Of a stretch of DNA of 64,000 bases, positions 36,223 through 55,675 are shown in pieces (position 1 is the first letter of the stretch; each line of letters opens with the position of its first letter). The position numbers were made by a program, and so were the translations under genes. The notes beneath the pieces were generated by a model, which made no database searches, had not been told where the DNA came from, and saw only the letters and a program-made list of their open reading frames with translations. The DNA is from Streptomyces antibioticus (GTDB lineage Bacteria; Actinomycetota; Actinomycetes; Streptomycetales; Streptomycetaceae): the NCBI RefSeq assembly GCF_001514065.1, contig NZ_KQ948426.1, positions 372,001-436,000 on the forward strand. The letters are read 5' to 3'.

Positions 36223-36360
36223 CTAGGACCAGCCCGGGTCGTGGACCGTCGCCGTCGCCACGGTGGTCGTCTGCGTGTCGGCACCGGAGTCGCTCGCGCC
36301 GAGGACGGCGATCAGGGCGGCGGCGGTGACGGCGACGAGCGTGGCGAGCGTGCGGCGCAT
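36223..36360 (-). CDS. Small secreted peptide precursor (45 aa) next to TrmB/LuxR-type regulator
   Basis: 45-aa frame: basic MRRT, hydrophobic LATLVAVTAAALIAVLGAS, then SGADTQTTTVATATVHDPGW and a final S. GGGGGAACC lies at good spacing before ATG 36360. The signal sequence would leave roughly a 20-22-residue extracellular peptide ending HDPGWS. The gene is divergent from the LuxR-type regulator at 36775 and convergent with the PH-domain gene. It parallels the regulator-peptide pair at 5.6-7.2 kb, which makes a signalling role worth testing, but this is inference. Confidence 0.72.
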   Translation of the reverse strand: MRRTLATLVAVTAAALIAVLGASDSGADTQTTTVATATVHDPGWS

Positions 36361-36774
36361 TTGGTTCCCCCAAGTAGTGGCGTTTTAGCGTGAGTTGGGC
36401 CGTTCCGGGCGGTTCGGCGTGACTCCATACTGGGGTTCGAGTGATCCTCGAGTCGCGTGTTTTCCGTGGCACGAAACGATCTGGCACATGTGTGCCAGCG
36501 AGCGGTCCGGACGGCCGGAGGCGGGGGCACGGGATCTTCACACTCGTGCGAGGTGATCTTGGGAAGCGGCCACGAGCATGATCACGTCACGCTGCTGACC
36601 TGCGCGTCCGCTCCATGGACGGGCTTGTGGTGAGACCCCGTCCGGCGGCACAATCCCTCCGCATGACTTGACCCACGGAGTGGCCGCGCCGGGGCTGGGA
36701 CGGGCCCGTCCCCCATGTGCCGCCAGCGTTGTCGGGACCCGCCGCCCTCCGTGACACGAAGCTGGGGGGCTTGC
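36361..36774. promoter_or_regulatory. Divergent control region between secreted peptide and LuxR-type regulator
   Basis: About 410 bases with no credible gene. It holds an inverted repeat at 36481-36498 and GATC-containing near-palindromes around 36440-36460. No standard promoter hexamers could be assigned with confidence. Confidence 0.45.
36481..36498. promoter_or_regulatory. Inverted repeat CTGGCACA-TG-TGTGCCAG, candidate operator
   Basis: A perfect 8-bp inverted repeat with a 2-bp spacer. The half-site TGGCACA also occurs in inverted orientation in the divergent promoter of the biosynthetic operons (51402-51410 and 51464-51472), suggesting a shared regulator. Confidence 0.55.
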
Positions 36775-37758
36775 GTGCTGGTTTCTCTCGGACTGACCGA
36801 GCAGTCCGACCGTCTGTATCGGGCCATTCTCAGACGGCCGGATCTGGCCGTCGCGGAGGCCGCGAACGAACTCGGTGTCACCGAGGAGAAGGTGCGCGAG
36901 GAGCTGGAGGAACTCACCCGTCTCTCCCTTCTCACCCCCACCTGGCGCCGGGACGGCCGGCTGCGCGTGGTCGCCCCGAAGGCGGCGCTCGACTCCCTGC
37001 TCGCCCATCAGCAGGCCGAGATCGTCGAGCGGCAGCGCGCCCTCGCCGAGAGCCAGGCCGCTGCCGACGCCCTCCTGACCCAGTACGCCGAGCTGCACCC
37101 GGAGGAGCCCGAGCAAGGGGCGGAACGATTCCTCGGCGTCGAGGCGGTGCGCGCCAAGATCACCGAGCTGACCGCCGACGTCCGCACGGAGATCATCAGC
37201 TTCCACCCCGGCGGCCCTCAGCCCGCGGCCCAGTTCGAGGCCAGCGAGCCGATCACCACCGGGCTCCTCGACCGCGGGGTCAAGGTCAAGGGCGTCTATC
37301 AGGACTCGCTCCGCAACGACCCGGTCAGCGTCGAACACGCCCGCTGGCTCACCGAGAACAGCGGCGAGTTGCGCACCGTCCCCTCGCTGCCGATGCGGAT
37401 GATCATCCTGGACCGGCAGAAGGCCCTGGTGCCGATCGACCCCGCCGACAGCTCCCTGGGCGCCGTCCTGCTGCGCGAACCGGGGGCCGTGGCCGCCTTC
37501 TGCGCCCTCTTCGACGCCGTGTGGGCGACGGCCACCCCCTTCGGCGAACCGGCCCGCCGCAGCCTCGACGACCCCGGCTCGCAGCCCCGCGAGCTGCTCC
37601 GCCTCCTCGCCCAGGGCTACACCGACGAGGCCGCCGCCCGCCGCCTCGGCATCTCGCTGCGCAGCGAACGGCGCCTGATCTCGGAGCTGATGGAGAAGCT
37701 CGACGCGCAGAGCCGCTTCCAGCTGGGGCAGCGGGCCGTCGAACACGGCCTCTTGTAG
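36775..37758 (+). CDS. TrmB-like / LuxR-type HTH transcriptional regulator
   Basis: 327-aa regulator. The N-terminal winged helix resembles TrmB (LYRAILRRPDLAVAEAANEL, KVREELEELTRLSLL). The middle has a phospholipase-D-like sensor region (RTEIISFHPGGPQPAAQFEA, RMIILDRQKALVPIDPADSS). The C terminus is a LuxR-type HTH (LLRLLAQGYTDEAAARRLGI, RLISELMEKLDAQSRFQLGQ). This architecture is common among Streptomyces orphan regulators. GTG 36775 has GGGGGG at good spacing. It lies tail-to-tail with the last gene of the biosynthetic operon, 7 bases apart, and is the best candidate for the cluster's pathway regulator. Confidence 0.88.
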   Translation: MLVSLGLTEQSDRLYRAILRRPDLAVAEAANELGVTEEKVREELEELTRLSLLTPTWRRDGRLRVVAPKAALDSLLAHQQAEIVERQRALAESQAAADALLTQYAELHPEEPEQGAERFLGVEAVRAKITELTADVRTEIISFHPGGPQPAAQFEASEPITTGLLDRGVKVKGVYQDSLRNDPVSVEHARWLTENSGELRTVPSLPMRMIILDRQKALVPIDPADSSLGAVLLREPGAVAAFCALFDAVWATATPFGEPARRSLDDPGSQPRELLRLLAQGYTDEAAARRLGISLRSERRLISELMEKLDAQSRFQLGQRAVEHGLL

Positions 37759-37765
37759 GGGGACT

Positions 37766-38245
37766 TCAGCAGGCGCAGGCGATTCCGCTGACCGGTGCCG
37801 TCAGCGGGTCGACCGCCTGCCGGCGGATGCCGGCCGCGTCCTCGACCTCGAAGCCCTCGCGGGACCAGTACTCGAAGCCGCCCAGCATCTCCTTGACCGG
37901 GTGGCCGAGCCCGGCGAAGGCGTACGCGGCCCGGGTGGCCCCGTTGCAGCCGGGCCCCCAGCAGTAGGTGACGACCAGCGCCCCGGACGGCACCAACTCG
38001 GTCGCCCGTTCGGCGATTTCGTCCGTCGGCAGATGGACGGCCCCGGGGATGTGCCCCTGCTCCCACGCATCGGTGCTGCGCGTGTCGATCAGCACGAACC
38101 CCTTGGCGCCCGACTCGATGTCGGCGTGCACGTCGGAGGCGTCCGCCTCGAAGGACAGCCGCCCGCGGAAGTGGGCGAGCGCCTCGGCGGGGTCAGCGGC
38201 GGGGACGCGCAGCACCTTCGAGGGGGCGGTGGTGGTCGTGGTCAT
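37766..38245 (-). CDS. Rhodanese-like sulfurtransferase
   Basis: 159-aa single-domain rhodanese: FVLIDTRSTDAWEQGHIPGA, VVTYCWGPGCNGATRAAYAF (active-site loop with Cys), GHPVKEMLGGFEYWSREGF. It has a C-terminal ACAC tail. It could deliver sulfane sulfur or act as a phosphatase-like or sensor domain. It is the last gene of the leftward biosynthetic operon and its start lies 53 bp inside the upstream permease gene. AAGGAGAAG precedes the ATG. Confidence 0.88.
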   Translation of the reverse strand: MTTTTTAPSKVLRVPAADPAEALAHFRGRLSFEADASDVHADIESGAKGFVLIDTRSTDAWEQGHIPGAVHLPTDEIAERATELVPSGALVVTYCWGPGCNGATRAAYAFAGLGHPVKEMLGGFEYWSREGFEVEDAAGIRRQAVDPLTAPVSGIACAC

Positions 38246-39236
38246 GGGGCTTCTTCTCCTTGGGACGGTTCGTGAGGTGGCGTACGGCGGCTACGGCGAC
38301 GACCGCGAGGATCGCCGCGGTCGCGCTGCCGGGCAGCAGGAGCAGGACGGCGGCGGTGCCGCCCCCGAGATGGGCGAGGGTGAGGGTGACGAGGGCGAGG
38401 GTGGCGGCGGTGGCGGTGCCCTGGGCCTGCGGGCGGCCGGTCAGTTCGTGCCAACGGGCGCCGGTGGACTGGAGGTTGGTGCGGCAGTAGAGGGCGAGGA
38501 CGAGGGCGCTCAGCAGGGCGAGGGGGGCGAGGGGGAGGTCGGCGAGGGGAGCGGGCGGTCGCAGGAGTACGGCGTACAGGGCGGCGGCGGCCGTGACGCC
38601 GAGCAGCGTTCCGGCCAGGCCCGCCCGTCGGGGCGCCGAGCCTTCGATGTGCGGACCCGCCCGCCCGGGCACCGCGCCTTCGATGTGCAGACCCGACCGC
38701 CCGGGCACCGCGCCTTCGATGCCGACCCAGCCGAAGAGCAGCGGGAGCAGCACCCACCAGGAGGCGGTGGTGTCGGGGGCCCCGCCCAGCGCCCACCATC
38801 CCCCGGCGGCCGCCAGCACGGCCGCCAGCCGCAGCCGCCGTACCGGCGTCGACAGCGGGCGGGGGCGGTAGGTGGCCCAGGTGGCGGCGGCCAGCAGGAC
38901 GGCGACCGACCAGCCGTACGCGTCACCCCCCAGCCGGGCCGCGAACTCCCCGGCCGTCAGGGCGACCGCGGCCTGCCCGGTGGCGAACCCGGCGAAGTAC
39001 AGCCCGGTGACGGTCCGGGCGGCCCGGAACCCCAGCCGCCGCCGCACGAACCCGACGGCCCCGCCTCGGGCGGTGCCGCCCGCGCGGGCGACGAGCAGAC
39101 ACCAGAGGGCCACCACGAGCGCGACCACCGCGGAGTGTCCGACCGGCACGGGGGCGAGGGCGGAGGGCAGCAGCAGGGCGCCCGCGCCGAGGACGGCGGC
39201 GAGGGTGCGGACCGTGGCCGCCGTCACGTCCCTCAT
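38193..39236 (-). CDS. APC-like permease / multi-spanning transporter
   Basis: 347-aa membrane protein with nine to ten hydrophobic segments (AAVLGAGALLLPSALAPVPV, SAVVALVVALWCLLVARAGG, FAGFATGQAAVALTAG, TGTLLGVTAA...). It resembles short amino-acid permeases of the APC superfamily. A loop near the middle contains three copies of a 12-residue unit (IEGAVPGRSGLH, IEGAVPGRAGPH, IEGSAPRRAGLA). The tail is His/Asp-rich (KKPHDHDHHRPL). Its start overlaps the MetRS-like stop by ATGA, so it is cotranslated with the biosynthetic genes and may export the product or import a precursor. Confidence 0.82.
   Translation of the reverse strand: MRDVTAATVRTLAAVLGAGALLLPSALAPVPVGHSAVVALVVALWCLLVARAGGTARGGAVGFVRRRLGFRAARTVTGLYFAGFATGQAAVALTAGEFAARLGGDAYGWSVAVLLAAATWATYRPRPLSTPVRRLRLAAVLAAAGGWWALGGAPDTTASWWVLLPLLFGWVGIEGAVPGRSGLHIEGAVPGRAGPHIEGSAPRRAGLAGTLLGVTAAAALYAVLLRPPAPLADLPLAPLALLSALVLALYCRTNLQSTGARWHELTGRPQAQGTATAATLALVTLTLAHLGGGTAAVLLLLPGSATAAILAVVAVAAVRHLTNRPKEKKPHDHDHHRPLEGAARPRR
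38641..38722. repeat. 36-bp tandem repeat inside the permease gene
   Basis: Units beginning CCTTCGATGT start at 38641, 38677 and 38713 (third partial). They encode the 12-residue loop repeats of the permease and keep the reading frame. Likely prone to copy-number change. Confidence 0.75.
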
Positions 39237-40876
39237 GACAGCTCGTGGAAGAACAGCGGTGCCGCGTCCGGGAGTTGCGTGCCCGCCGGGACCAGGCGGC
39301 CGTCCAGCGCGGCCCACTGGGGCATCTGCGTCGTCATGTCCACCTGCACGCCCAGCTGTCCGGCGAGGTGGGCGGACCAGCCCGGCATCAGGGGGGCCGA
39401 GGTGACCGCGACCGCCGCGAGGAGTTCGAGGTGGGCGACGAGGCGGGCGGCGTACTCCTCGCGCGGGCCCGCGGCCCGGACCAGGGACAGTTGGCGCAGG
39501 TCGTCGACGGCACGGTCGACGATCACGGCCAGTTCGGCGGCGGCCTTCTGCGGGGAGAAGGTCTCCGCGCCGAGGGCGGCGGCGATACGGGCGGGCAATT
39601 CGGCGCGGTCCTCGTCGAGGAAGGTGACGGACAGGGCGGTCTCCGGGACCACCGACTGGAAGTCCTGCGCGAACAGGTCGAGGACGGTGTCGGTCCAGCG
39701 CTCGATGCCGCCGGCGAGGACGGTGCTGACGGTGTCGGCGAACTCCTTCATGGAGAAGTTGTTCTGCTCCCGCTCGGGGCCGGTCAGCGCGAGGTGGAAG
39801 CGGAGCGCGTCGGCGTTGACGCGGCGCAGGAACTCGCCGCCCCAGATGGCGTGGCCGCGGCTGGTGGAGAACTTGTCGCCCTCCAGGCGGTAGAACTCGT
39901 TGATCACTACCTGCGAAGGAAGCGTCAGTGTGCCCTGGGCGAGCAGCAGTGCCGGCCACAGCACCGCGTGCGAGAACGAGCAGTCGAAGCCGATGAAGTT
40001 GACGATCTTCGTGTCGGGGTTCGTCCACAGGCGCTCCCACTCCGCCTTGTCGCCGTTGGCCTCCGAGAGGCGGGCGGTGGCGGCGGCGTAGCCGAAGATG
40101 CCGCTGAACCAGGTGTCGAGGATGTGCCCCTCCCAGCCCTCCAGCGGGACCGGGATGCCGTAGTCGGCCTCGCGGGAGATCGGGGTGGCGGGCAGGGCGC
40201 GCTCGAACAGGCCGTCCAGGTAGGAGATCAGGCGCGGGCGCCATTCCGCCTTCGACTGGGCTTCCGTGTAATAGGCCTGGAGGCGGTCGCGGTAGTCGTC
40301 GAGCGGGAAGACGATCCGGCGCAGGGTGGTCAGGCCCGGCTCCTGCCAGCAGGACGTGCACTTGGGGTTGGCCAGGCCCGCGGGGGCCTGGGCGAGACCG
40401 CAGGCCTCGCAGTAGACGCCGTCGGAGGGGTCGGCGCAGAACTGGCACTCGCCGCGCACCTCGGCCTCGTAGAGGTAGCGGTCGCAGGGCTCGCAGCGGA
40501 AGACGGGCAGTTCCTCGACCTTCAGCGCGCCCGCGTTCCACAGCTCCAGGAAGAAGCGCTGCACGAACTCGGTGTGCGTGGTGTCGGTCAGCGGGCGGGT
40601 GAACCAGTCGTGGTGCATGGATCCCAGCGACAGGGTCTGCTCCATGCGGTCGCCGAACAGCTTCGCGGTCGGGTACGCGGTGGAGCCGATCTCGGCGGCG
40701 CGGCGCGGGACGTAGCAGGAGTGCTCGTCGGAGTAGCCGACGTACCGGACGTCGTGGCCGCGCTGACGGAGGTGCCGGCTGAGGATGTCGGCGCCGAGGA
40801 ACGGGCCGGAGAGGTGGCCGAGGTGGAGGTCGCCGTTGGGGTTGGGCGGGGCGCTGGTGACGACGTACGAGGTCAT
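39233..40876 (-). CDS. Methionyl-tRNA-synthetase-like enzyme of hydrazine biosynthesis type
   Basis: 547-aa class I synthetase-fold protein. It keeps an ATP-binding HLGH (PNPNGDLHLGHLSGPFLGAD), zinc-knuckle cysteines (CEPCDRYL, CQFCADPSDGVYCEACG, CTSCWQ) and a KMSKS-like KFSTSRGHAI. It differs strongly from the housekeeping MetRS at 30547 in the amino-acid pocket and C-terminal region. Homologues fused to a cupin (Spb40 and relatives) join N6-hydroxylysine to an amino acid, forming an N-N bond. A separate cupin gene lies two genes upstream, so this is probably the activating half of a split hydrazine synthetase. The amino acid it activates (Gly, Glu or other) is unknown. Confidence 0.85.
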   Translation of the reverse strand: MTSYVVTSAPPNPNGDLHLGHLSGPFLGADILSRHLRQRGHDVRYVGYSDEHSCYVPRRAAEIGSTAYPTAKLFGDRMEQTLSLGSMHHDWFTRPLTDTTHTEFVQRFFLELWNAGALKVEELPVFRCEPCDRYLYEAEVRGECQFCADPSDGVYCEACGLAQAPAGLANPKCTSCWQEPGLTTLRRIVFPLDDYRDRLQAYYTEAQSKAEWRPRLISYLDGLFERALPATPISREADYGIPVPLEGWEGHILDTWFSGIFGYAAATARLSEANGDKAEWERLWTNPDTKIVNFIGFDCSFSHAVLWPALLLAQGTLTLPSQVVINEFYRLEGDKFSTSRGHAIWGGEFLRRVNADALRFHLALTGPEREQNNFSMKEFADTVSTVLAGGIERWTDTVLDLFAQDFQSVVPETALSVTFLDEDRAELPARIAAALGAETFSPQKAAAELAVIVDRAVDDLRQLSLVRAAGPREEYAARLVAHLELLAAVAVTSAPLMPGWSAHLAGQLGVQVDMTTQMPQWAALDGRLVPAGTQLPDAAPLFFHELS

Positions 40877-40898
40877 GGTCTTCGAAGTCCTTAAAGCC

Positions 40899-41504
40899 TT
40901 AGGAGGCGAGCTTGTTGAGGGCGGGCTCCGGCACGGCGCTGGTGTCGAGCGCCGGGAGCACCTCGCAGGTCGGTGCCACCACGCGGCTGTGCGGCGGGAG
41001 GTCGTCCAGGACGATGGCGTGGGCGCCGACGCGGGAGTCGGAGCCGACGGTGACCGGGCCGAGGACGCTGGCGCCGGTGCCGATGATCACGCGGTCGCCG
41101 ACGACGGGGTGGCGGCGGGAGCCGGCCGGGCGGCGCAGGTCCTTCCACCAGCCGACCGAGCCGAGCGTGACCTGGTGGTACAGCATCACGTCGTCGCCGA
41201 TGCGGACGGTCTCGCCGATGACGACGGCGGTGCCGTGGTCGACGAAGAAGCGGCGGCCGATCCGGGCGCCCGGGTGGATCTCGATGCCGCTGACCGCACG
41301 GGCCAGCAGCGACAGGGCACGGGCGGTGAAGCGGTGCCCGCCCCGCCACAGGCGGTGCGCGACCCGGTACGTCCACAGGGCGTGGATGTGCGGGTAGAGC
41401 AGCACCTCGGCGCGGGAGGAGGCGGCGGGGTCCTTGGCGAGGACGGTGGCGATGTCCTCGGCGAGCAGCGCCCGCAGCCGCGGCCCCTTCTCACATGTGG
41501 TCAT
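40899..41504 (-). CDS. Serine O-acetyltransferase-like (CysE family) protein
   Basis: 201-aa left-handed beta-helix acetyltransferase. Hexapeptide repeats run from about residue 75 on (IEIHPGARIGRRFFVDHGTA, VVIGETVRIGDDVMLYHQVT, VGDRVIIGTGASVLGPVTVG). The catalytic Asp/His region VDHGTAVVIGE and HPVVGD are conserved. CysE makes O-acetylserine for cysteine or, in several pathways, as a scaffold for beta-substituted alanines. No CysK-like partner is present, so it may acetylate a pathway intermediate or supply O-acetylserine as building block. It overlaps the upstream oxidase stop by 14 bp. Confidence 0.87.
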   Translation of the reverse strand: MTTCEKGPRLRALLAEDIATVLAKDPAASSRAEVLLYPHIHALWTYRVAHRLWRGGHRFTARALSLLARAVSGIEIHPGARIGRRFFVDHGTAVVIGETVRIGDDVMLYHQVTLGSVGWWKDLRRPAGSRRHPVVGDRVIIGTGASVLGPVTVGSDSRVGAHAIVLDDLPPHSRVVAPTCEVLPALDTSAVPEPALNKLAS

Positions 41505-42699
41505 ACGGCGCCTCCGGTCTGACCGGCCGGCCCGCGAGGAACCGCTGCGGACGGTAGGGCTCCAGGAGCTCCTGGACGGCCTTGCCGGGTACGGCACCGC
41601 CGTCGACGATCTCCTTCGCCGCCAGCTCGGCGACGGCGGGCGCCATCTTGAAGCCGCCGCCGCTGAAGCCGAGGGCGAGGTAGAGCCCGTCGGGTCCGGC
41701 GGCGCCGACGACGGGCCGCTTGTCGGGGGTGTAGCCGTCGAGGCCCGAGCGGGTGCCGGCCAGCGGAGCCGTGGCCGCCTGCGGGACCCGGACCGCGATC
41801 GCGTTGATCGCCGCCTCCAGCTCGGCCTGCGTGAGCGGCTCCACGTCCCGGCCCAGTTCGGTGTCCGGCTTGCTGGGCACACCGAAGTAGAAGCGGTCCA
41901 GGCCGTCGGGCCGGAAGTAGGAGCCGGTGGTGTCGTCGATGCAGGTCGGCACCGAGGCCCGGGAGCCCCGTCGCCCCGCGCCCGGCAGTTCGGCCTGCGC
42001 GAGGCCGATGCGCCGGGCGGTCACCGGGATGTGGACGCCGAGGTACTCGGCAGGACCGGACCCCCAGGCGCCGCCCGCGAGGACGACCAGCGGGGCGTCG
42101 ATCCGCCCGATGGAGGTGAGGACCCCGGTGACGACACCGGCGTGCTCCAGGACCTTCATCGCCCGGATGCCCTCGGACGGGGAGACCCCGAGCCGGTAGG
42201 CGGCGGCCAGCAGCGCCCCCGAGGCGGCCATCGGGTCGGCGTACCCGCCCTCGGGCTCGTAGGCGGCCAGCGCGATGTTCTCGGTGCTGAGCCCGGGATA
42301 GATCTCCTTCAGCTCGTACGGGTCGACGATCTCGACCCGCCGGTGCCCGGCCGCGTCCGTCGTGGCGGCGGCGTTCTGCCGCAGGTCCTCGGCGTGGTTG
42401 TCGCCGACGATCATCACGAACCCGGTGCGCCGGTAGCCGCAGTCGCCGCCGATGACGTCGGCCCACTGCTCGAACACCGGCAGGGAGCGGGCGGCGAGCC
42501 GGGTGTCGGCGACGGCGGTGTGGTGCAGCCGCAGCAGCCCGCCCGAACGGGACGTGGCGCCCTGGGCGTTGACCCGGCCCTGGTCGCACAGCACGATCCG
42601 GCCGAGCCCGGCCAGCGCGAGCTGGTGCGCGATGGCCGCGCCGATCACCCCGCCGCCGACGACCACCGCGTCGGCGTGCGCGTGCACGATGGGACTCAT
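41491..42699 (-). CDS. FAD-dependent D-amino-acid/glycine-oxidase-type oxidoreductase
   Basis: 402-aa DAO-fold flavoenzyme. FAD-binding VVVGGGVIGAAIAHQLALAG is at about residues 11-30, TSRSGGLLRLHHT follows, and the C-terminal GYTPDKRPVVGAAGPDGLYL with GFSGGGFKMAP matches the family. In the s56-p1 pathway the equivalent enzyme (Spb39) oxidatively cleaves the lysine-derived C-N bond of the hydrazine intermediate to release hydrazinoacetic acid. Here it sits directly after the cupin, overlapping by one base (TGATG). Assignment to the hydrazine pathway rests on context. Confidence 0.9.
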   Translation of the reverse strand: MSPIVHAHADAVVVGGGVIGAAIAHQLALAGLGRIVLCDQGRVNAQGATSRSGGLLRLHHTAVADTRLAARSLPVFEQWADVIGGDCGYRRTGFVMIVGDNHAEDLRQNAAATTDAAGHRRVEIVDPYELKEIYPGLSTENIALAAYEPEGGYADPMAASGALLAAAYRLGVSPSEGIRAMKVLEHAGVVTGVLTSIGRIDAPLVVLAGGAWGSGPAEYLGVHIPVTARRIGLAQAELPGAGRRGSRASVPTCIDDTTGSYFRPDGLDRFYFGVPSKPDTELGRDVEPLTQAELEAAINAIAVRVPQAATAPLAGTRSGLDGYTPDKRPVVGAAGPDGLYLALGFSGGGFKMAPAVAELAAKEIVDGGAVPGKAVQELLEPYRPQRFLAGRPVRPEAPYDHM

Positions 42700-43181
42700 C
42701 AGACGGACACCCCTGCCCCTGCTCCGGAGCCGACACGGGAGTGGAGGGGACCGGACGGGTCGTCGATCTCGAACACGGAGGCCCACTTGGCGCGTTCCCT
42801 GGCGATCGCCTCGTGGCCGCCCCACCAGATGGTGACGAACCGCAGCCGGGTCTCGCCGTCGTTGGTGAGGTCGTGGTCCTGGTACGGGGTGATGAACACC
42901 GTCTCCCCGGCCCGCACCCGGCGCGTCTCGTCGCCGATGCGCATGACGCCGCTGCCCTCGGTGATGAAGAACATCTCGTTCTCGTCGTGGTTGTGGGCGG
43001 TGGACGTCTCGCCGGGCGCCACGTCCACCCAGGCGCCGCCCCAGGTGGGCTCCTCGACCGCGCCGGGCCAGGGGAAGATGCGCCGGCCGCTGACGTTGTA
43101 CGGCTCCTCGAAGACCATGTCCTCCTCATGGGCGGTGAACACGTGCATCAGGCTCTTCTTCTCGGGCTGTTGCTTGCTCAT
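42699..43181 (-). CDS. Cupin protein (stand-alone half of a hydrazine synthetase)
   Basis: 160-aa single cupin domain. Metal-binding motif 1 is STAHNHDENEMFFITEGSGV and motif 2 PYQDHDLTNDG. The N terminus MSKQQPEKKSLMHVFTAHEE contains no signal peptide. In Spb40-type enzymes an equivalent cupin domain binds the intermediate ester and rearranges it to the N-N bonded product. Here it is a separate gene between the N-hydroxylase (13-base gap) and the FAD oxidase (one-base overlap). GGGGGACC precedes ATG 43181. Confidence 0.87.
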   Translation of the reverse strand: MSKQQPEKKSLMHVFTAHEEDMVFEEPYNVSGRRIFPWPGAVEEPTWGGAWVDVAPGETSTAHNHDENEMFFITEGSGVMRIGDETRRVRAGETVFITPYQDHDLTNDGETRLRFVTIWWGGHEAIARERAKWASVFEIDDPSGPLHSRVGSGAGAGVSV

Positions 43182-43194
43182 GGGGTCCCCCGTT

Positions 43195-44499
43195 TCACGC
43201 GGCGACGGGCTGCCGCAGTCGGCTGCGCAGGTCGCGGTGGATGGTGTCGGCCTTGGCGGCCATCTGGCTGAAGGAGGTGGCGGAGCCGATGCCGTGCCGC
43301 CACTCGGTGAGGCCGTCGAGGTAGAGGCCCACCTCGCAGTCGTCGGTGGTCTCGGCGCGGTAGGCCCGGGTGACGTCGGGGCGGCCCTGCGCGTCGAACG
43401 TCAAGTAGGGCTTGAACGCCTCCAGTTGGCGGGGGAAGGCGGCCTCGCGGTAGCCGGTGCAGACGATGACGGCGTCGGCCTCGATGACGCTCCGCTCGCC
43501 GGTGAAGACCTCCTCGGTGTGCAGCCGGACGACGTCGCCGGCCTGCTGGACCTCGCGCACATCGGTGCGGCGGTGCATGTGCAGCCGGTGCCGTCCGGTG
43601 AGCCGGTCCTGGTAGACGGCCTGGTAGAGCCCGGTGGAGACGTCCGGGTCGACGGCGGCGTAGTTGGTGGCGCGGGCCTGGTCCAGGGCGCGCTCGCGCT
43701 CCTCGTCGCCGAGGGCGTAGAAGTAGTCGGTCTCGTCGGGGAAGTACACCTCGTTGCTGAAGTGGCCCAGCTCGTACATCCGGAAGCCGGCGTGCCGGAC
43801 CAGGGAGTGGATGTGGGCGTCGGGGTTCTGCCCGGCGAGGTGCAGCACGATCTCACCGGCGGTCTGCCCGGCGCCGATGACGGCGACGCGGGCCGGCTGC
43901 CCGAGGGCGGCCAGGGAGGGCAGCAACTTGCTGGCGTGGAAGACGCGTTCACCGAGGGCGGGCCGGAACACCTCGGGCACGTAGGCCTCGTGACCGGTGG
44001 CGAGGGCGATGTTGCGCCCTTCGACGGTGTGCAGGGACCCGTCCCGGGGATCCCGGGAGACGACCCGCGCACTGAGCACCCGCCCGTCATCACCCACCAC
44101 CGGCTCCACCGACAGCACCTCGCGGTGGTAGTCGACCTGACCGCGCACCTGCCCGGCCGCCCACTGCACGTAGTCCGACCACTCCAGGCGGCTCGGGTAG
44201 CCGCCCATCAGCGTGAACGGGTAGAAGCGGCCGGTCTGGTGCAGATAGCTCGGGAAGCCGAACCGGGAGCGCGGGTCGCGAGGGGTCGCGAAGTCGCGCA
44301 GGAAGTGGTGCTGGATGTCGGTGCCGGGCAGGACGAGGTTGGGCTGCCAGGCGGAGTCGGGCGCCTTCTCCAGGTAGCGGGCGTCCAGGACACCGCCGTG
44401 CGCGTCGTCGTGGTCCTCGACGGCCGCGGCGAGGGCGATCCCGGAAGGTCCGAACCCCGCGACGACGAGATCATGGGCGTCGTAGGAGCTCGTGCTCAT
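43195..44499 (-). CDS. Lysine/ornithine N-hydroxylase-family flavin monooxygenase (1)
   Basis: 434-aa FAD/NADPH monooxygenase of the SidA/IucD/PvdA family. FAD site [20 protein letters not shown]; substrate region [25 protein letters not shown] site [21 protein letters not shown]-terminal ATGF-type motif is present as [12 protein letters not shown]. It hydroxylates the side-chain amine of a diamino acid. Because it is next to the cupin, FAD oxidase and MetRS-like genes, it is the likely source of N6-hydroxylysine (Spb38 role). ATGA overlap with the aminotransferase. Confidence 0.9.
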
Positions 44500-47236: not shown

Positions 47237-48726
47237 CGCTGAGTGCTCCTTGAAGTGACAGTCGTGAAGGTCGGATTGCCGTCGAAGTCGATGCGCAGGC
47301 CGCCGATGCGGTCGGCCGCGTACACGCGTTGGTCGGTGCGGTACCAGAGGGGGATCAGGGCGAGGTCGCGGATCGCGATCCGGTCGGCCCGCCGCCAGGC
47401 GTCGACGCGTTCGGCGGGGTCGCCGGCGGCGCGGGCGCGGGCGACCAGGGCGTCGAACTCGGCGTCTACGTACCGCCCTTCGTTGTCGCCGTGGGCGGTC
47501 CCGTCGGCGTCGGGGGCGGTGCAGGAGGAGTGCAGCAGCGGGAAGAGCATGTTGTCGGGGGTGGGGTAGTCGCAGGCCCACCCGGCCCGGCACAGACCCG
47601 CCGCCGCGATCGAGGTGCGGTGGTCGACGAGACCGCGCGCGTCGGTGCGCAGCAACTCGACCCGCCAGCCGTGGACGTCCTCAAGCCCCTTGGCCAGGGC
47701 GATGACCCAGTCGTCGTGCCCGGCACCGGTGTTGTAGGCGAGGTCGACGCGGGTGCCGGGGCCGAGCCCGGCCCGCCCGGCCGCTTCCCGCGCCCGCTGC
47801 GGGTCGTACGCCGTCCAGTCGTCCTCGATCTCGGCGCGCGGGGTGTGCGCCTTGCCGAACCACGGCGACAGCAGCGAGTGCGCGGCCGTACGGCTGCCGT
47901 GGAAGTGGGTGTCGATGAGCCCCTGCCGGTCGATGGCGGCGGAGACCGCCCGGCGGGCGTCCACCGAGTCCATGGGCGCCTGGTGGCAGAAGGGGATGAG
48001 GTAGAAGAGCCCGGCGCCCTCCTGCTCCAGGTAACCGTCCTGCTGCGCCGCCTCCTCGGTCCGGGCCGGCGGGATGCGGGCGTAGTCGTAGGTGCCGTCG
48101 GCGAACCGGGCGTACTCGTCGTCGAGGGCGGTGACCGGATCGAGGATGTCGAGGTGGACCTCCTCGATCTCCGGCCGCGGCCCGAACCACCGCTCGTTGC
48201 GCCGCAGCCGGATCGCCTCGCCGTGCCGCCAGGGTCCGTCCATCACGAACGGGCCGTTGCCGACCGGGAGATCGTTGTACGACGTCTCCAGCGCGGCCGG
48301 CGTCCAGGACGGCACCGGGAAGAAGATCGGCTGGAGCGTCTTGAGATCGAACTGGACGTCCGGCTCGGCGAGTTCGACGACCAGCGTGGCGTCGTCCACG
48401 GCCGTGAAGTCCCGGACGCCCGCCAGGTGGTAGGCGGTCTCGGTGTTGGCCTCGGGGTCCAGGGCGCGCCGCCAGCCCCGTACGAAACTGTGCGCGGTGA
48501 CCGGCTCGCCGTCGCTGAAGACGGTGTCGGTGCGCAGCCGGAAGGTCCAGGTCGTGGCGGTCGGGTCGGACTGCCATTCCAGGGCCGTCGCCGGGATCAG
48601 CTCCCCGTCCTCGTCGAGCGCGAGCAGTCCGGTGAACAGGGCCTTGCAGACGAGGATGCCCTCGCCCTCCTGGGCCTTGTACGGGTCGATGGCGGTGGGC
48701 TCGGTGATGCCCATACGGAAGATCAC
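47233..48726 (-). CDS. Oligopeptide-type solute-binding-protein fold without signal peptide
   Basis: 497-aa protein of the SBP_bac_5 (OppA/DppA) family. It opens MIFRMGITEPTAIDPYKAQE, i.e. directly at the mature domain, with no hydrophobic leader or lipobox Cys. Typical blocks: TWTFRLRTDTVFSDGEPVTA, HSFVRGWRRALDPEANTETA, VGNGPFVMDGPWRHGEAI, RRAVSAAIDRQGLIDTHFHG. Unless a start was missed, it is cytoplasmic. No ABC permease or ATPase gene is in the cluster. A role as intracellular carrier, chaperone or sensor of the peptide product is possible. The GTG start overlaps the upstream stop by GTGA. Confidence 0.88.
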   Translation of the reverse strand: MIFRMGITEPTAIDPYKAQEGEGILVCKALFTGLLALDEDGELIPATALEWQSDPTATTWTFRLRTDTVFSDGEPVTAHSFVRGWRRALDPEANTETAYHLAGVRDFTAVDDATLVVELAEPDVQFDLKTLQPIFFPVPSWTPAALETSYNDLPVGNGPFVMDGPWRHGEAIRLRRNERWFGPRPEIEEVHLDILDPVTALDDEYARFADGTYDYARIPPARTEEAAQQDGYLEQEGAGLFYLIPFCHQAPMDSVDARRAVSAAIDRQGLIDTHFHGSRTAAHSLLSPWFGKAHTPRAEIEDDWTAYDPQRAREAAGRAGLGPGTRVDLAYNTGAGHDDWVIALAKGLEDVHGWRVELLRTDARGLVDHRTSIAAAGLCRAGWACDYPTPDNMLFPLLHSSCTAPDADGTAHGDNEGRYVDAEFDALVARARAAGDPAERVDAWRRADRIAIRDLALIPLWYRTDQRVYAADRIGGLRIDFDGNPTFTTVTSRSTQR

Positions 48727-50066
48727 GCGGCGCCCCTGACCGCCGGCGGCACGGCCACGGGCGGGACCATGACGACGTCGAGCTGCTCGTCGAGCTCGGC
48801 GGCGATCCGCTCCACCCGGTCGACGTCCTCGACGCCCCGGTAGGGCGCGGCGACGGCGAGCGAGCCGGCGATCTCGTACCAGCCCTCGGGGGCGCGGCGC
48901 AGCCGGTCGCCGGGCTTGGAGGCGGGGATGTAGGAGCGGAAGTAGGGGGAGTGATAGGCGTCGCCGGGGTTGTTGCGGACCAGCGTGCCGGTCCGGTAGG
49001 CGAACTTGATGCAGGTCGCGGCGCGCGGGGTGGCGGCCCGGCGGACCTCGCCGTCGAGCACGGCGGCCCGCTTCTCGGCGTCGTCCCCGGCGAGCACGGC
49101 CTTGGCGTACAGCCGTACCGCGTCGATGCCGTGCACCTCACGCAGGTTGCGGTAGTTCTGGCCGCCGCTCATCCGGGTGGCGAACTCCACGACCCGGTAC
49201 CGGCCCTGGGCGTCCTGCCGGAACTCGGCGTTGAACAGGCAGTGCTCGACCCCGAGTCCGGCGACGATGCCCTCGGCGACCGCGACCAGCTCCGGCTCCT
49301 CCTCCGGGGTGCGGAAGGGCAGGGTGTAGAAGTCCTCCTCGAAGTAGGGGCCCGGCATCTGCATCTTGTTCGTGACGCCGACGAGATGGAACTCGCCGTT
49401 GACGACGACCCCGTCGAGGGTGACCTCCTTGCCCGGCAGGAACTCCTCGATGAGCGCGATCTCGGGGCCGTCGCTCGGGAAGTAGCCGCCCCACTCCTCG
49501 GCGAGCCGCGCCACGTCGGCCAGCGCCCGCTCCAGCTCGTCCCGGTCACGGACCAGGCCCACGCCGATGCTCGCGGCGAGCGCGCTGGGCTTGACGATGA
49601 AGGGGTACAAGAAGTCCTCGGCCGCCTTCAGACCCGTCTCGACGCCGGTCACCCCGGCGAACTGCGGGGCGGGCAGGGCGTGTTCGGTGAGGAAGGTGCG
49701 CTGGAGCTTCTTGTCCCGGGAGATCGCGTCGGCCTGCGGGCGCGGCCAGGTGTGGCCGAGCAGCTGGTTGGCGCGGGAGGTGACGGCGATGTCGCTGTCG
49801 TAGAAGGTGATCGCGGTGGCGATGCCCAGCCTGCGGGCCTCCTCGGCGCAGAAGGCGGCCATCGACTCGCCCTCCAGCTCCTCCGGGACCGGGATCACGG
49901 AGGCGAAGCGGCCGTCCGCGGCGGCCTGCTTGACGCCGGTCGCCAGGTGGATCTCCAGGCCCATCCGCTCCAGCGTCTCGATGTGCTCGCGGTGCCACGC
50001 GTAGGTGTTCCGCATGATCAGCAGGATCTTGTTGCTGTCGCTGCTGCTGTGGATCTTGTTGCTCAT
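48723..50066 (-). CDS. ATP-grasp ligase (B)
   Basis: 447-aa ATP-grasp enzyme. N-terminal pre-ATP-grasp domain (NKILLIMRNTYAWHREHIET), central ATP-grasp with FIVKPSALAASIGVGLV, LIEEFLPGKEVTLDGVVVNG and metal-binding FNAEFRQDAQGRYRVVEFAT followed by RMSGGQ. It resembles carboxylate-amine ligases of the L-amino-acid ligase and BtrJ type. It would form an amide between an acyl-phosphate-activated amino acid and an amine. ATGA overlap with ligase A and GTGA overlap with the solute-binding protein gene. Confidence 0.9.
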   Translation of the reverse strand: MSNKIHSSSDSNKILLIMRNTYAWHREHIETLERMGLEIHLATGVKQAAADGRFASVIPVPEELEGESMAAFCAEEARRLGIATAITFYDSDIAVTSRANQLLGHTWPRPQADAISRDKKLQRTFLTEHALPAPQFAGVTGVETGLKAAEDFLYPFIVKPSALAASIGVGLVRDRDELERALADVARLAEEWGGYFPSDGPEIALIEEFLPGKEVTLDGVVVNGEFHLVGVTNKMQMPGPYFEEDFYTLPFRTPEEEPELVAVAEGIVAGLGVEHCLFNAEFRQDAQGRYRVVEFATRMSGGQNYRNLREVHGIDAVRLYAKAVLAGDDAEKRAAVLDGEVRRAATPRAATCIKFAYRTGTLVRNNPGDAYHSPYFRSYIPASKPGDRLRRAPEGWYEIAGSLAVAAPYRGVEDVDRVERIAAELDEQLDVVMVPPVAVPPAVRGAA

Positions 50067-51355
50067 GCCGCGACCTTCTGCTCCAGCTCGACGGTGACGA
50101 CGGTGATCTGCTCCACCAGGGCCTCGGCGGTCTCGACCGCCGCCGTGGTGTCCGGGCCGGTGGTCAGCACCTGGCCCGCGCGGTCCCAGTTGCCGCGCAG
50201 TTCGCCGAGGACGTCGCCCGGCTTCACGGTGGTCTCGACGTCGATGACGTCGGCCAGCTGCTTGGCCTCCTCGACGCCCTGCACCTCGACGACCGTGCCG
50301 GGGCGGGCGGACAGGAAACGGGTGGCGGCGGAGCGCTCCGGCACCGGGCGGCCGTCCAGGGCCGGGATCAGCCCGAACTGCCAGGCCACGATCCACTCCT
50401 CGACGTCGATGCCGTAGGCGGCGTTCAGCAGGTCGAAGATGCGGTCGCCGCCCATGCGGTTGTGGCTCTCGATGATCTTCGGCCCGGTGGGGGTGAGCCG
50501 CAGCTCGGTGTGGGCGGCGCCGTCCGTGAGGCCGAGGGCGTCCAGGAAGCGGGCGACCGTGTCCTCGATGCTCCGCTCCTGCTCGGCGGTGAGCCGGGCC
50601 GGCAGCGCGTGCCCGAACTCGATGAACCCGTTCTCGCCGCCGGTCAGCTTCTCCGTGACCGCGAGGACCACATGCCGGCCCGCGAAGGAGAACGACTCCA
50701 CGCTGAACTCCGGGCCGGAGATGTACTGCTCGACGAGGAAGCGCTCGATGTGGAAGAAGTTCCCCCACTGAAGATCGGTGCGGGCCCGCAGCGCCTCCAC
50801 GCCGGCCCACGCGGCCGCCGCCTGCCCGGGCCCGTCGATGCGCTCGACGCCGAGGCTCGCGGTGGCGTCGGCGGGCTTGAGCACGAACGGGTAGCCGTGC
50901 GCGGCACCGAAGGCCACCAGGTCGTCGGCGGATGTCACCTCGGCGGCGGCGACCGACAGGTCCCGGGTCTCCTCCGAGGCGGCCAGCAGATCGCGCATCG
51001 CCCGCTTGTCCCGCAGGAGTTCGGCCGTGCGCTCGGTGGTCCCGCCCAGGCCCAGGTGGTCGCTGATCCGCGCGGCCGGCACCAGACCGGGCTCGGTGAT
51101 CGACACCACCCGGGTGAAGCCGTACGCGGTGTGCGCGGCCTCGATCAGCGGGCGGGTGGTCTCCCAGTCGGTGTAGTCCGCGATGATCACGGCCTCGGCG
51201 AGCTTCGCCGCCTCCGGCACGAAGTGGTCCTGGTGCTGGATCAGCACGAAACGGATCCCGAGGGCGGCCGCCTTGCGCAGGGTCTGGATACGGCCGCCCA
51301 CCACGAGCAGCGTGTGGTCACCGGTTGATCGCGAGGTCGCTGATTGCTGGGTCAT
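50063..51355 (-). CDS. ATP-grasp ligase (A)
   Basis: 430-aa ATP-grasp enzyme, first gene of the leftward operon. N-terminal TLLVVGGRIQTLRKAAALGI, ATP site PFVLKPADATASLGVERI, VEQYISGPEFSVESFSFAG, metal site PTGPKIIESHNRMGGDRI (Glu/Asn). It is of the PurK/L-amino-acid-ligase type, making an amide or dipeptide bond. The ATG at 51355 has only a weak ribosome-binding site; frames extending upstream cover the divergent promoter and are not credible. With ligase B it offers two successive condensations, substituting for the absent NRPS. Confidence 0.9.
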   Translation of the reverse strand: MTQQSATSRSTGDHTLLVVGGRIQTLRKAAALGIRFVLIQHQDHFVPEAAKLAEAVIIADYTDWETTRPLIEAAHTAYGFTRVVSITEPGLVPAARISDHLGLGGTTERTAELLRDKRAMRDLLAASEETRDLSVAAAEVTSADDLVAFGAAHGYPFVLKPADATASLGVERIDGPGQAAAAWAGVEALRARTDLQWGNFFHIERFLVEQYISGPEFSVESFSFAGRHVVLAVTEKLTGGENGFIEFGHALPARLTAEQERSIEDTVARFLDALGLTDGAAHTELRLTPTGPKIIESHNRMGGDRIFDLLNAAYGIDVEEWIVAWQFGLIPALDGRPVPERSAATRFLSARPGTVVEVQGVEEAKQLADVIDVETTVKPGDVLGELRGNWDRAGQVLTTGPDTTAAVETAEALVEQITVVTVELEQKVAA

Positions 51356-51393
51356 GGCGAAAACTCTGGGCCATGAATTACAGCGGCGAAATA

Positions 51394-51472
51394 GTTTTCG
51401 GGTGGCACAAGAATGCCCGGCACAATTGATCCAGCAGGCCACCGAAAACAGCCGCTGGCATGTTTGTGCCAC
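51394..51472. promoter_or_regulatory. Inverted-repeat region in the divergent promoter of the biosynthetic operons
   Basis: GTGGCACAA (51402-51410) is inverted as TTGTGCCAC (51464-51472), with a third GGCACAA at 51419-51425. Outside and inside these, GTTTTCGGGTGG and CCACCGAAAAC are imperfect inverted copies. The region lies between ligase A (start 51355) and the DUF3291 gene (start 51549) and probably controls both operons. Confidence 0.55.
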
Positions 51473-51548
51473 GCACTTTGGTGCCCGCCCGTTCCCCTTC
51501 CTGTGCCGCTGCCGCACCGGGAACATCGAGGTCATGCCAAGGATCGCC

Positions 51549-52085
51549 ATGACTACGTTCGCCGTGCTCAAGCAGCCGTATCCGCACCTGTCGAACGACG
51601 ACTTCAACGCACTCGAACCACTGGTTTTCGGCGCCTCGGAAACCAGCCCCGGCTTCATCGCCCGCGCCACCGCGATCGACGTCGTCGACACCAAGTGGAC
51701 GAATTTCGGCCGGGACTACGGCGAGTGGGGGTTCTTCGACGCGCCCGCCTTCTACACCGGCGGCCGCACCGACGACACCGACACCCGCGCCTCCACCCTC
51801 TCGCTGTGGGCCGACCTCGCCTCCGTGAAGGCGTACGCGTACGGCGGTCTGCACCGGCAGGCGCTGCGCGACCGCCGCCGCTGGTTCGCCCAGATCCCCC
51901 ACAAGCTGTACGCGGCCTGGTGGGTGGCCGACACCGAGATCCCCACCTGGACCGAGGCCTGCCGGCGCCTTGAGCACCTGGACACGCACGGTCCCAGCGC
52001 GCACGCCTTCGACTTCAGGCAGCCCTTCGACCCCGAGGGCCGCCCCGTGTCCTCGTCCTCCGCCCCCGAGGTGACCCATGTCTAA
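51549..52085 (+). CDS. DUF3291 domain protein
   Basis: 178-aa protein matching DUF3291, a dimeric alpha/beta-barrel fold: FAVLKQPYPHLSNDDFNALE, ASETSPGFIARATAID, ASTLSLWADLASVKAYAYGG, HRQALRDRRRWFAQ. The conserved Trp/His/Arg pattern suggests an enzyme or small-molecule-binding role; related barrels include heme-dependent and cofactor-free monooxygenases. ATG 51549 has AAGGA five bases upstream, better than ATG 51534. Its stop overlaps the MFS start by 8 bp, making it the first gene of the rightward operon. Confidence 0.82.
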   Translation: MTTFAVLKQPYPHLSNDDFNALEPLVFGASETSPGFIARATAIDVVDTKWTNFGRDYGEWGFFDAPAFYTGGRTDDTDTRASTLSLWADLASVKAYAYGGLHRQALRDRRRWFAQIPHKLYAAWWVADTEIPTWTEACRRLEHLDTHGPSAHAFDFRQPFDPEGRPVSSSSAPEVTHV

Positions 52086-53473: not shown

Positions 53474-53740
53474 ATGTATGAGCCCCGCACCCGTCAGTTC
53501 CTCCAGGTGATGACCACCGCCGCCTTCCTGCTCACCTTCGTCGGAGCGGGGCTGAAGATCACCCTGGAGGCCTATTTCGTGCCCATGGGCGAGACCACCG
53601 AAGGCACCGGTGCCTTCCTCGACGGCGCGGCCACGTTCCTCGCCGTCACCACCGCCGCCGCCTACGCCCTGGTGGTCTGCGTGCTGGTGGCGGCGCGGCG
53701 GGTACCGGCGGCCGACGCCCCTTCCGACCTCCCCTCCTGA
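53474..53740 (+). CDS. Mini-MFS: two-helix fragment paralogous to the N terminus of the preceding MFS
   Basis: 88-aa protein with two transmembrane helices. FLQVMTTAAFLLTFVGAGLK and YFVPMGETTEG align closely with LLLVLSAAAFLLTLAGSALK and YFVPMADTFGG of the MFS at 52078. It then stops after helix 2 with a short polar tail. AAGGA lies upstream of the ATG, and the gene is spaced like an intact operon member (13 bases before the next start). It is either a decayed duplicate or a retained accessory subunit. Confidence 0.8.
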   Translation: MYEPRTRQFLQVMTTAAFLLTFVGAGLKITLEAYFVPMGETTEGTGAFLDGAATFLAVTTAAAYALVVCVLVAARRVPAADAPSDLPS

Positions 53741-53753
53741 AGGAGCCCCACCC

Positions 53754-54995: not shown

Positions 54996-55032
54996 CCTTC
55001 CGCACCCGCCCCTTCACATCTGAGAGACCCCG

Positions 55033-55635
55033 ATGACCGTCACCAGCACCGAAGTTCCCCGCATCGACATCCCCTCCGCGACCGAGGACCCGGCCGCGTA
55101 TGTCACCGCGCTCCTCGAAGTCGCCGCCGAGCGCGACCCGTTCGACGTCCTCGCCAAGACGCCGGTGTGGGCCGCGCGGCTCTTCGCGGACCTGCCGACC
55201 GAGCTCGCCGAGACGGTCCCGGAGGAGGGGGAGTGGCCGGCCGCGTTCACCGTCGGCCACCTCTTCGACGTCGACATCGTCTACGGCTTCCGCTGGCGCC
55301 TGGTCGCCACCGAGGACGCCCCCGTCTACCCCGGGTACGACGAGGAGAAGTGGGCCCCGCTGCCGCGCCTCCCGTTCCGTCAGATGCTCGACGCCTGGAC
55401 CGGCCTGCGCGCCTCCAACGTGGCCCTGCTCGCGGCCCTGCCGCCCGAGGACTGGCAGCGCACCGGCCACCACGGCGAGCAGGGCGGCGAGACCATGGAG
55501 GTCATGATCAAGAAGGTGGTCGGCCACGACATCGCCCACATCAACCAGATCTACCGGGCGATCCGCCTGGTCCGTCAGGCGGCGGGACTGGAGGTGGCCG
55601 AGCTGGACGCGACCTACCTGTCGCTGGGCCTGTAA
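55033..55635 (+). CDS. DinB-fold protein
   Basis: 200-aa protein of the DinB/YfiT four-helix metalloenzyme superfamily. Metal-binding His residues are expected in FTVGHLFDVDIVYGFRW and VVGHDIAHINQIYRAIR. In actinobacteria such proteins include mycothiol-dependent transferases and detoxification enzymes, so it could inactivate a reactive pathway product or intermediate. It is the last gene of the rightward operon, 37 bases after MFS 2, and is followed by a strong terminator. Confidence 0.85.
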   Translation: MTVTSTEVPRIDIPSATEDPAAYVTALLEVAAERDPFDVLAKTPVWAARLFADLPTELAETVPEEGEWPAAFTVGHLFDVDIVYGFRWRLVATEDAPVYPGYDEEKWAPLPRLPFRQMLDAWTGLRASNVALLAALPPEDWQRTGHHGEQGGETMEVMIKKVVGHDIAHINQIYRAIRLVRQAAGLEVAELDATYLSLGL

Positions 55636-55643
55636 CACCCTGG

Positions 55644-55675
55644 AGGCGCCCGGGACTTGACCGTCCCGGGCGCCT
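55644..55675 (+). terminator. Terminator of the rightward biosynthetic operon
   Basis: AGGCGCCCGGGAC (55644-55656), loop TTGACC, GTCCCGGGCGCCT (55663-55675), followed by TTG. A perfect 13-bp stem marking the right edge of the cluster; it may also serve the convergent dioxygenase gene. Confidence 0.88.

What the first reader, a model, noticed from the sequence alone, without database searches (positions are those of the whole stretch)
36223..55675. Hydrazine-type biosynthetic gene cluster without NRPS/PKS
A leftward 12-gene operon and a divergent rightward 5-gene operon combine an N-hydroxylase, cupin, MetRS-like enzyme and FAD amine oxidase (the known N-N bond-forming set of s56-p1, triacsin and formycin/pyrazomycin) with a second N-hydroxylase, a diaminobutyrate aminotransferase, a CysE-like acyltransferase, two ATP-grasp ligases and exporters. 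I do not recognise this combination from a described pathway. Tight overlaps show it is one unit. The product would be a small hydrazine-containing, peptide-like metabolite.
Basis: partly seen in the sequence, partly recalled or inferred. Interest (0 to 1): 0.95.

Follow-up and report, generated by a model that had tools for sequence, protein, structure and literature searches.

The report
NRPS-free diaminobutyrate-hydrazine peptide gene cluster
A block of genes kept together in at least nine other actinobacterial genomes is predicted to couple diaminobutyrate to a second amino acid, likely serine, through a nitrogen-nitrogen bond and would then build the product into a small peptide without the usual giant assembly-line enzymes.

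Summary
Twelve leftward genes (37766-51355) and a divergent set to 55635 encode two N-hydroxylases, a stand-alone cupin, a MetRS-like enzyme, an FAD amine oxidase, a diaminobutyrate (DABA) transaminase, a CysE-like acyltransferase, two ATP-grasp ligases and transporters; a LuxR-type regulator (36775-37758) also belongs. The ten genes LAL1-METRS are collinear in the nine closest relatives, at least two of them with different neighbours, so this is one unit. The MetRS-like model is nearest the solved PyrN hydrazine-synthetase domain. I change the chemistry: lysine plus glycine is unlikely. Of 77 related loci, all 27 with a DABA transaminase have Arg where PvdA has Lys in the N-hydroxylase, and Cys in the MetRS-like pocket; 45 Lys-type loci have neither. 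This is one phylogenetic split, but two transaminase families occur on its Arg side. A CysE-like gene adjoins, or is fused to, the MetRS-like gene in the 25 closest loci and is absent or not adjacent in 55 others, which suggests serine as partner (untested). I judge it a new variant of the cupin/MetRS hydrazine pathway. The product is unknown and no chemistry has been shown.

The parts
36775..37758 (+). LuxR/GerE-type regulator (LUXR), convergent, cluster edge
   Evidence: Pfam GerE and HTH_23 weak hits, below the curated cut-offs; kept at the cluster edge in L021, L022, L024-L028. An upstream start at 36715 is possible.
37766..38245 (-). rhodanese-like protein (RHOD)
   Evidence: PF00581 4e-16; tblastn hit in 7 of 7 close relatives with sequence there
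38193..39236 (-). APC-fold membrane transporter (MEMB)
39233..40876 (-). MetRS-like half of the hydrazine synthetase (METRS)
40899..41504 (-). CysE-like O-acyltransferase (CYSE)
   Evidence: TIGR01172 2e-55, below its curated cut-off; EpsC model NF041874 above its cut-off; catalytic D, D-H and R-H present; the genome has another CysE on contig C1
41491..42699 (-). FAD amine oxidase, DAO family (DAO)
   Evidence: PF01266 3e-54; nearest solved chain is a sarcosine oxidase, 1y56_B
42699..43181 (-). stand-alone cupin (CUP)
   Evidence: PF07883; His63, His65, Glu69, His103 reproduce the PyrN spacing His50, His52, Glu56, His90; PDB relatives plu4264 and RHS1/5uqp
43195..44499 (-). second N-hydroxylase (NOHB)
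   Evidence: PF13434 2.5e-84 in the longer ORF; nearest PDB 5cqf, 336 bits; Arg at the PvdA Lys69 position
44496..45887 (-). DABA:2-oxoglutarate transaminase, Dat type (DABAT)
   Evidence: PRK06938 524 bits (cut-off 671), TIGR00709 438 bits (cut-off 401.6)
45902..47236 (-). first N-hydroxylase (NOHA), predicted to act on DABA
   Evidence: PF13434 2.2e-84; nearest PDB PvdA 3s5w, 226 bits; Arg65
47233..48726 (-). SBP_bac_5 protein without evident signal peptide (SBP)
   Evidence: PF00496 9e-57; N-termini of 11 orthologues read by eye, none with a signal peptide (no predictor run)
48723..50066 (-). ATP-grasp ligase 2 (ATPg2)
   Evidence: PF13535 9e-20
50063..51355 (-). ATP-grasp L-amino-acid ligase with LAL_C2 domain (LAL1)
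   Evidence: PF13535, PF18603, PF18130; nearest PDB ligase BL00235, 3vot; start ATG by eye, gene finder chose 51304
51356..51533 (.). divergent intergenic region, presumed promoters
   Evidence: between LAL1 and DUF3291 starts; no sigma-70 consensus match
51534..52085 (+). DUF3291 protein, accessory
   Evidence: PF11695 5e-31; next to the cluster in G101 and G102 as read and in G100 by coordinates; homologues also near the cluster in L031, L034, L044
52078..53373 (+). MFS transporter 1, accessory
   Evidence: PF07690; present in L119 and L120, absent beside the cluster in L121 and L122
53474..53740 (+). 88-aa MFS remnant
   Evidence: gene finder; no Pfam hit; kept in L119 and L120
53754..54995 (+). 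MFS transporter 2 (MFS2), core
   Evidence: PF07690; on the divergent side of LAL1 in 4 of 4 regions read
55033..55635 (+). DinB_2 protein (DinB), core
   Evidence: PF12867 6e-18; found in 8 of 8 full-cluster genomes searched, plus G109

Best explanation
This is one co-inherited cluster, without NRPS or PKS genes, whose enzymes are predicted to make DABA from aspartate semialdehyde, to N-hydroxylate it, to join it through an N-N bond to a second amino acid that is likely serine, and then would ligate the product into a small exported peptide. Predicted steps, none assayed: (1) DABAT makes DABA. (2) NOHA makes N4-hydroxy-DABA. (3) METRS activates the partner amino acid with ATP and esterifies it to the hydroxylamine oxygen; the Zn-type cupin rearranges the ester to the hydrazine, as published for PyrN and RHS1. 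(4) CYSE O-acetylates either free serine before loading or the seryl hydroxyl of the hydrazine, making acetate a leaving group. (5) DAO oxidises one C-N bond, as published for Spb39 and Apy10. (6) NOHB adds a second oxidation, perhaps on the hydrazine. (7) LAL1 and ATPg2 form amide bonds. (8) MFS2 and the APC-fold protein move product or precursors; LUXR regulates. Shown here: gene content, conservation, cupin and CysE catalytic motifs, predicted fold of METRS, the transaminase/Arg/Cys association and the CysE-MetRS fusions. Inferred: every reaction and the product.
Against: No metabolite or assay. The Arg/Cys/DABA association follows one branch of the MetRS tree, so it is one event, not 32. 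Five Arg loci (L031, L033, L037, L038, L051) show no DABA transaminase at the 30% threshold; L033 and L038 are short, and L031 has a DABAT-like gene at its cut edge. The serine assignment rests on CysE alone: no seryl pocket was tested, and Apy9, the described DABA enzyme, uses alanine. CYSE scores below the TIGR01172 cut-off. The order of peptide coupling is unknown. NOHB, RHOD, SBP, DUF3291 and DinB have no firm step, and L034 and L043 have CysE and METRS but no NOHB. Within the CysE clade the cupin is not uniform: L032 and L037-L043 show His-Val/Ile-Asn instead of His-X-His.
Confidence: 0.55

Rival explanations
1. Same pathway class with DABA, but the partner is alanine or glycine, and CYSE acts later, for example by acylating the hydrazine or a hydroxyl of the product. 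The first product would be 2-amino-4-hydrazinobutyrate, as in actinopyridazinone.
For: Apy9 couples N4-hydroxy-DABA with alanine only and Por11 couples it with glycine (review PMC11705231). The non-CysE DABA loci share the same pocket motif.
Against: It does not explain why CYSE is fused to METRS in some relatives and tied to this MetRS clade.
Confidence: 0.25
2. The lysine plus glycine (hydrazinoacetate) route of s56-p1, triacsin and azaserine.
For: Same enzyme classes: N-hydroxylase, cupin, MetRS-like, DAO.
Against: Arg in place of Lys in the N-hydroxylase and Cys in the pocket set this clade apart; a DABA transaminase is in the operon; the saccharopine dehydrogenase, carrier and adenylase genes listed for azaserine are not among the Pfam hits here.
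Confidence: 0.08
3. A hydroxamate-type metallophore: two N-hydroxylases make hydroxy-DABA, CYSE-like acylates it, and the SBP binds the chelate.
For: N-hydroxylase, acyltransferase and SBP_bac_5 genes occur together; weak CntA similarity of SBP.
Against: The cupin and PyrN-like MetRS have no role in it; no IucA/IucC-type or NRPS synthetase and no ABC permease is among the genes scanned; the SBP shows no signal peptide.
Confidence: 0.05
4. A decayed or non-functional remnant.
For: An MFS remnant lies inside the rightward operon; the S. philanthi relative looks broken.
Against: All 12 operon genes are open, the cupin and CysE motifs checked are kept, and ten genes keep order at 68-99% identity in relatives.
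Confidence: 0.03

Closest known systems
Actinopyridazinone (apy9-11; N4-hydroxy-DABA plus alanine)
   Same: DABA N-hydroxylase, cupin/MetRS synthetase, FAD oxidase (described in review PMC11705231)
   Different: Here cupin and MetRS-like are separate, and a CysE-like gene, a second N-hydroxylase and two ATP-grasp ligases are present. The apy sequences and full gene list were not compared.
s56-p1 (Spb38-40), triacsin (Tri26-28), azaserine (AzsL-N)
   Same: N-hydroxylase, DAO oxidase, cupin and MetRS-like enzyme
   Different: Those use lysine and glycine with a fused cupin-MetRS; azaserine also uses carrier proteins and an NRPS.
PyrN (pyrazomycin) and RHS1 (Rhodococcus jostii)
   Same: METRS model is nearest the PyrN domain; cupin ligand spacing identical; RHS1 is also a stand-alone cupin
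   Different: PyrN uses N6-hydroxylysine and glutamate; it aligns Asn and Arg where METRS has Cys299 and His303.
Albofungin set Afn8, Afn9, Afn18
   Same: Separate MetRS-like and cupin genes with an N-hydroxylase (review)
   Different: Albofungin is a polyketide; no CysE or DABA transaminase is described in the section read.
Valanimycin (serine with isobutylhydroxylamine; recalled)
   Same: Serine ester rearranged to a hydrazine, then activation of the serine hydroxyl for elimination (recalled)
   Different: Different enzymes; no cupin/MetRS pair (recalled, not compared).

Membership tests
Cupin/MetRS-like hydrazine synthetase pathway | MetRS-like protein with the hydrazine-synthetase fold | tested here: met
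Cupin/MetRS-like hydrazine synthetase pathway | Zn-cupin with His, His, catalytic Glu, His | tested here: met
   63/65/69/103 against PyrN 50/52/56/90
Cupin/MetRS-like hydrazine synthetase pathway | Flavin N-hydroxylase in the cluster | tested here: met
   Two, PF13434 E about 2e-84 each
Cupin/MetRS-like hydrazine synthetase pathway | ATP-dependent N-N bond formation | not testable with these tools
   needs enzyme assay
Lysine plus glycine (hydrazinoacetate) branch | Lys at the PvdA Lys69 position of the N-hydroxylase, the state of 45 of the 50 loci without a DABA transaminase | tested here: not met
   Arg in NOHA and NOHB. That this residue sets substrate choice is inferred, and the 45 loci were not matched to named pathways.
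DABA branch (actinopyridazinone-like) | DABA supply gene in the cluster | tested here: met
   Dat-type transaminase, TIGR00709 over its cut-off
DABA branch (actinopyridazinone-like) | N-hydroxylase acts on DABA | not testable with these tools
   only the Arg association
Actinopyridazinone cluster itself | sequence identity with apy genes | not tested
   apy sequences could not be fetched by name
Serine O-acetyltransferase (CysE) | catalytic Asp, Asp-His and Arg-His (functional labels recalled from E. coli CysE) | tested here: met
   present in the window and in all 31 other aligned rows
Serine O-acetyltransferase (CysE) | score over the TIGR01172 curated cut-off | tested here: not met
   187 bits against 210.65; the genome's other CysE also falls below it (175 bits)

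The most novel reading that the evidence does not exclude
A CysE-type acyltransferase works as a built-in third partner of the MetRS/cupin hydrazine synthetase: it O-acetylates the seryl unit so that the new DABA-serine hydrazine carries a leaving group, and elimination after DAO oxidation closes a pyridazine-type ring from DABA and serine. The ring amino acid is then joined into a peptide by two ATP-grasp ligases, giving an assembly-line-free route to N-N heterocyclic peptides.
Probability: 0.2. Interest if true: 0.85.

Novelty: new variant of a known kind. Interest (0 to 1): 0.64.

Why it matters
Cupin/MetRS hydrazine synthetases are a growing enzyme family, and the review section read here ties only some of them to products. 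This work names a sizeable orphan branch (32 of 77 loci) with a simple, checkable substrate code: Arg or Lys in the N-hydroxylase, Cys or not in the MetRS-like pocket, DABA transaminase or not. It also names a fixed new partner, CysE; the term serine acetyltransferase does not occur in that review, and a search pairing it with MetRS-like and hydrazine terms gave no paper that links them. Because the cluster has no NRPS or PKS, a standard antiSMASH run may not flag it (recalled, not run). Carriers include named strains such as S. flavotricini, S. toxytricini and S. justiciae.

Tried and rejected
Lysine/glycine route: rejected as first choice because of the residue and transaminase data. Metallophore: rejected, no synthetase or permease in the genes scanned and an SBP without signal peptide. 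Membrane N-N enzyme (AzpL- or VlmO-like, recalled) for the Pfam-less gene: rejected after its model matched APC transporters. Spinamycin as product of the S. albospinus relative L040: dropped; I recalled that strain as the producer, and saw the spinamycin cluster paper only as a reference in PMC13061610. Promoter and terminator scan: 0 promoter-like sites and 1 terminator-like site, no more than in shuffles. TTA codons: none in the 17 genes checked. SHMT and serine dehydratase beside L040 look like a housekeeping block (recalled) and were not counted as serine supply. A search of plasmids with the MetRS-like protein gave 76 records, all under 60% identity, and was not used further. Dpn5-Dpn6 of S. 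luteoverticillatus (review Table 2) could not be placed; its neighbourhood was not available, so I cannot exclude that it belongs to this clade.

Literature searches for prior description. The library holds open-licence PMC papers only; the papers by Matsuda and colleagues (2022, 2024) were seen only as references. Seen: PMC11705231 outline, section 15 whole, passages; PMC8664883 section 12 and passages; PMC13274452 abstract, outline and section 15; PMC10445470, PMC13061610 and PMC11429834 passages only. The other papers named by the searches were seen as listings.

Rows dropped: the MetRS tree left out L001-L004, L018, L019, L042, L057; of these L003 is a further CysE-type locus not otherwise counted. 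The pair table used the 80 genome-contig loci; L048, L056, L057 had no N-hydroxylase hit, leaving 77. A DABA transaminase was counted from 30% identity; L062 (about 26%) was not counted. Of 13 low-identity transaminases, L030, L044 and L052 were not checked by NCBIfam. The search for related loci kept 80 of 128 confirmed relatives. Homologue rows were seen for 120 of 848 proteins. The genome behind L023 was not searched for DinB. An earlier count said the membrane gene follows METRS in 18 of 22 loci; the count is 17 of 22 (the 18 included the window).
Full report
OBSERVATION. The window is from a 10.1-Mb genome whose nearest named relatives at this locus are Streptomyces. A codon-usage gene finder gives twelve leftward genes and five rightward ORFs; with two starts moved upstream by eye they span 37766-51355 and 51534-55635. 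The leftward genes overlap at 8 of 11 junctions and no gap exceeds 22 bp. Domain searches give, in order of transcription: LAL-type ATP-grasp ligase, second ATP-grasp ligase, SBP_bac_5, N-hydroxylase A, DABA transaminase, N-hydroxylase B, cupin, DAO oxidase, CysE-like, MetRS-like, a Pfam-less membrane protein, rhodanese. The divergent side has DUF3291, MFS, an MFS remnant, MFS and DinB_2. Its left coordinate is not: no gene was called at 36223-36541, and the edge is a LuxR-type regulator at 36775-37758.

ONE UNIT. A scan of a collection of 84,980 species genomes gave 80 loci (of 128 confirmed) for the MetRS-like protein. In the nine closest (L020-L028) the ten genes LAL1 to METRS are collinear, at 68-99% identity. 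LUXR and RHOD (tblastn) follow in 7 of 7 with sequence there, and MEMB was called in 6 of 7. DinB was found in 8 of 8 of these genomes searched, within about 5 kb of the fetched locus by coordinates, and inside the rearranged Actinacidiphila cluster L035. Four upstream regions were read: MFS2 and DinB lie on the divergent side of LAL1 in 4 of 4, while DUF3291, MFS1 and the MFS remnant are there in 2 of 4 (L119, L120) and missing in L121 and L122. L119 and L120 share the window's site beside aspS; L121 and L122 have other neighbours. In the window the cluster sits between a canonical MetRS gene (30502-32265) and an AspRS-type gene (56744-58507). So the unit is LUXR to DinB, with an optional DUF3291-MFS1 insert. 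The type is sporadic: 19 of 100 related genomes had a MetRS-like match at E up to 1e-60, of which the window's own and three others (L002-L004) have CysE beside it.

DABA, NOT LYSINE. In the alignment to PvdA, NOHA has Arg65 where PvdA has the Lys of its FLKDLVS stretch; that this Lys (Lys69, SidA Lys107) touches the substrate is recalled. Over the 80 named loci, 77 have an N-hydroxylase hit: 45 have Lys and no DABA transaminase, 27 have Arg and one, 5 have Arg and none found. All 32 Arg loci have Cys in the MetRS motif GFDC(S/G)(F/Y)SH (GYDC in L053), and none of the 45 Lys loci. Of 13 loci with a transaminase under 52% identity, 10 were tested and all 10 have a DABA transaminase as best NCBIfam hit: Dat type in L047 and L050, EctB type in L029, L034, L039, L040, L049, L053, L056, L092. 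L036 adds an aspartokinase-family gene. Caution: on the MetRS tree of 92 rows (quick method, SH-aLRT only, long branches flagged) the 24 CysE loci plus the window are one group (99), nine non-CysE loci with the Cys motif another (100), and the remaining 58 rows the other side of a branch (95). The residue association is therefore one event; only the two transaminase families count as partly independent. N4-hydroxy-DABA is an established precursor in actinopyridazinone (review).

CysE AS A FIXED PARTNER. CYSE lies beside or fused to METRS in 25 of 25 loci L020-L044. In the other 55 loci tblastn found none in 53 and a weak (33-35%), non-adjacent copy in L048 and L092. Four of the 120 listed MetRS-like homologues are CysE-MetRS fusions, and so is L043. 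The catalytic residues are kept in all 32 aligned rows, of which three repeat others. This is the best reason to think that serine, or O-acetylserine, is the partner amino acid. Serine-using cupin/MetRS enzymes have been reported; which ones is in a supplement I did not read. PyrN, which takes glutamate, has Asn and Arg at the positions of Cys299 and His303, so the pocket here is not the glutamate one.

VARIATION. Six relatives (L037-L042) carry a P450 of one family, between cupin and DAO in five of them; of the six only L039 also has NOHB, though L038 and L042 are short contigs. L034 and L043 have one N-hydroxylase and no close P450. L037-L043, and all six non-CysE Cys-motif loci in that alignment (L047, L049, L050, L051, L053, L092), have a His-Val/Ile-Asn cupin motif instead of His-X-His; so does the only cupin found in L032, which has NOHB. 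This hints that NOHB and the P450 supply alternative second oxidations; it is an inference with exceptions.

NOVELTY. In the held literature I found no description of this cluster or of a CysE-like partner for hydrazine synthetases. The key papers by Matsuda and colleagues were seen only as references, so this is not proof. I score it a new variant of a known kind.

Noticed in passing
window 53474-53740: An 88-aa MFS remnant with an N-terminus like MFS1, kept in two close relatives (L119, L120).
   Followed up: partly
window 47233-48726: A family-5 solute-binding protein without evident signal peptide is conserved in the cluster (11 orthologues read by eye): a likely cytosolic binding protein of unknown role.
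   Followed up: partly
window 30502-32265: A canonical MetRS gene (520 bits) lies about 5 kb from the cluster; the genome has a further MetRS on contig C4.
   Followed up: partly
window 34397-35152: TIR-domain protein near a bacterial PH-domain protein (35779-36144), just outside the cluster.
   Followed up: no
L021 15754 onward, L022 14674 onward: An ORF of about 1005 aa lies between the LuxR and PH-domain genes in these relatives; none was called at that place in the window.
   Followed up: no
L030 (Streptomyces philanthi): The N-hydroxylase genes look split or truncated, so the cluster may be decaying in this insect symbiont.
   Followed up: no
L037-L042: A P450 of one family occurs in these related clusters, with a His-Val/Ile-Asn cupin motif.
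   Followed up: partly
L037, L040, L041, L043: A conserved protein of 243-252 aa occurs in these clusters; the one scanned, from L043, has no Pfam hit.
   Followed up: no
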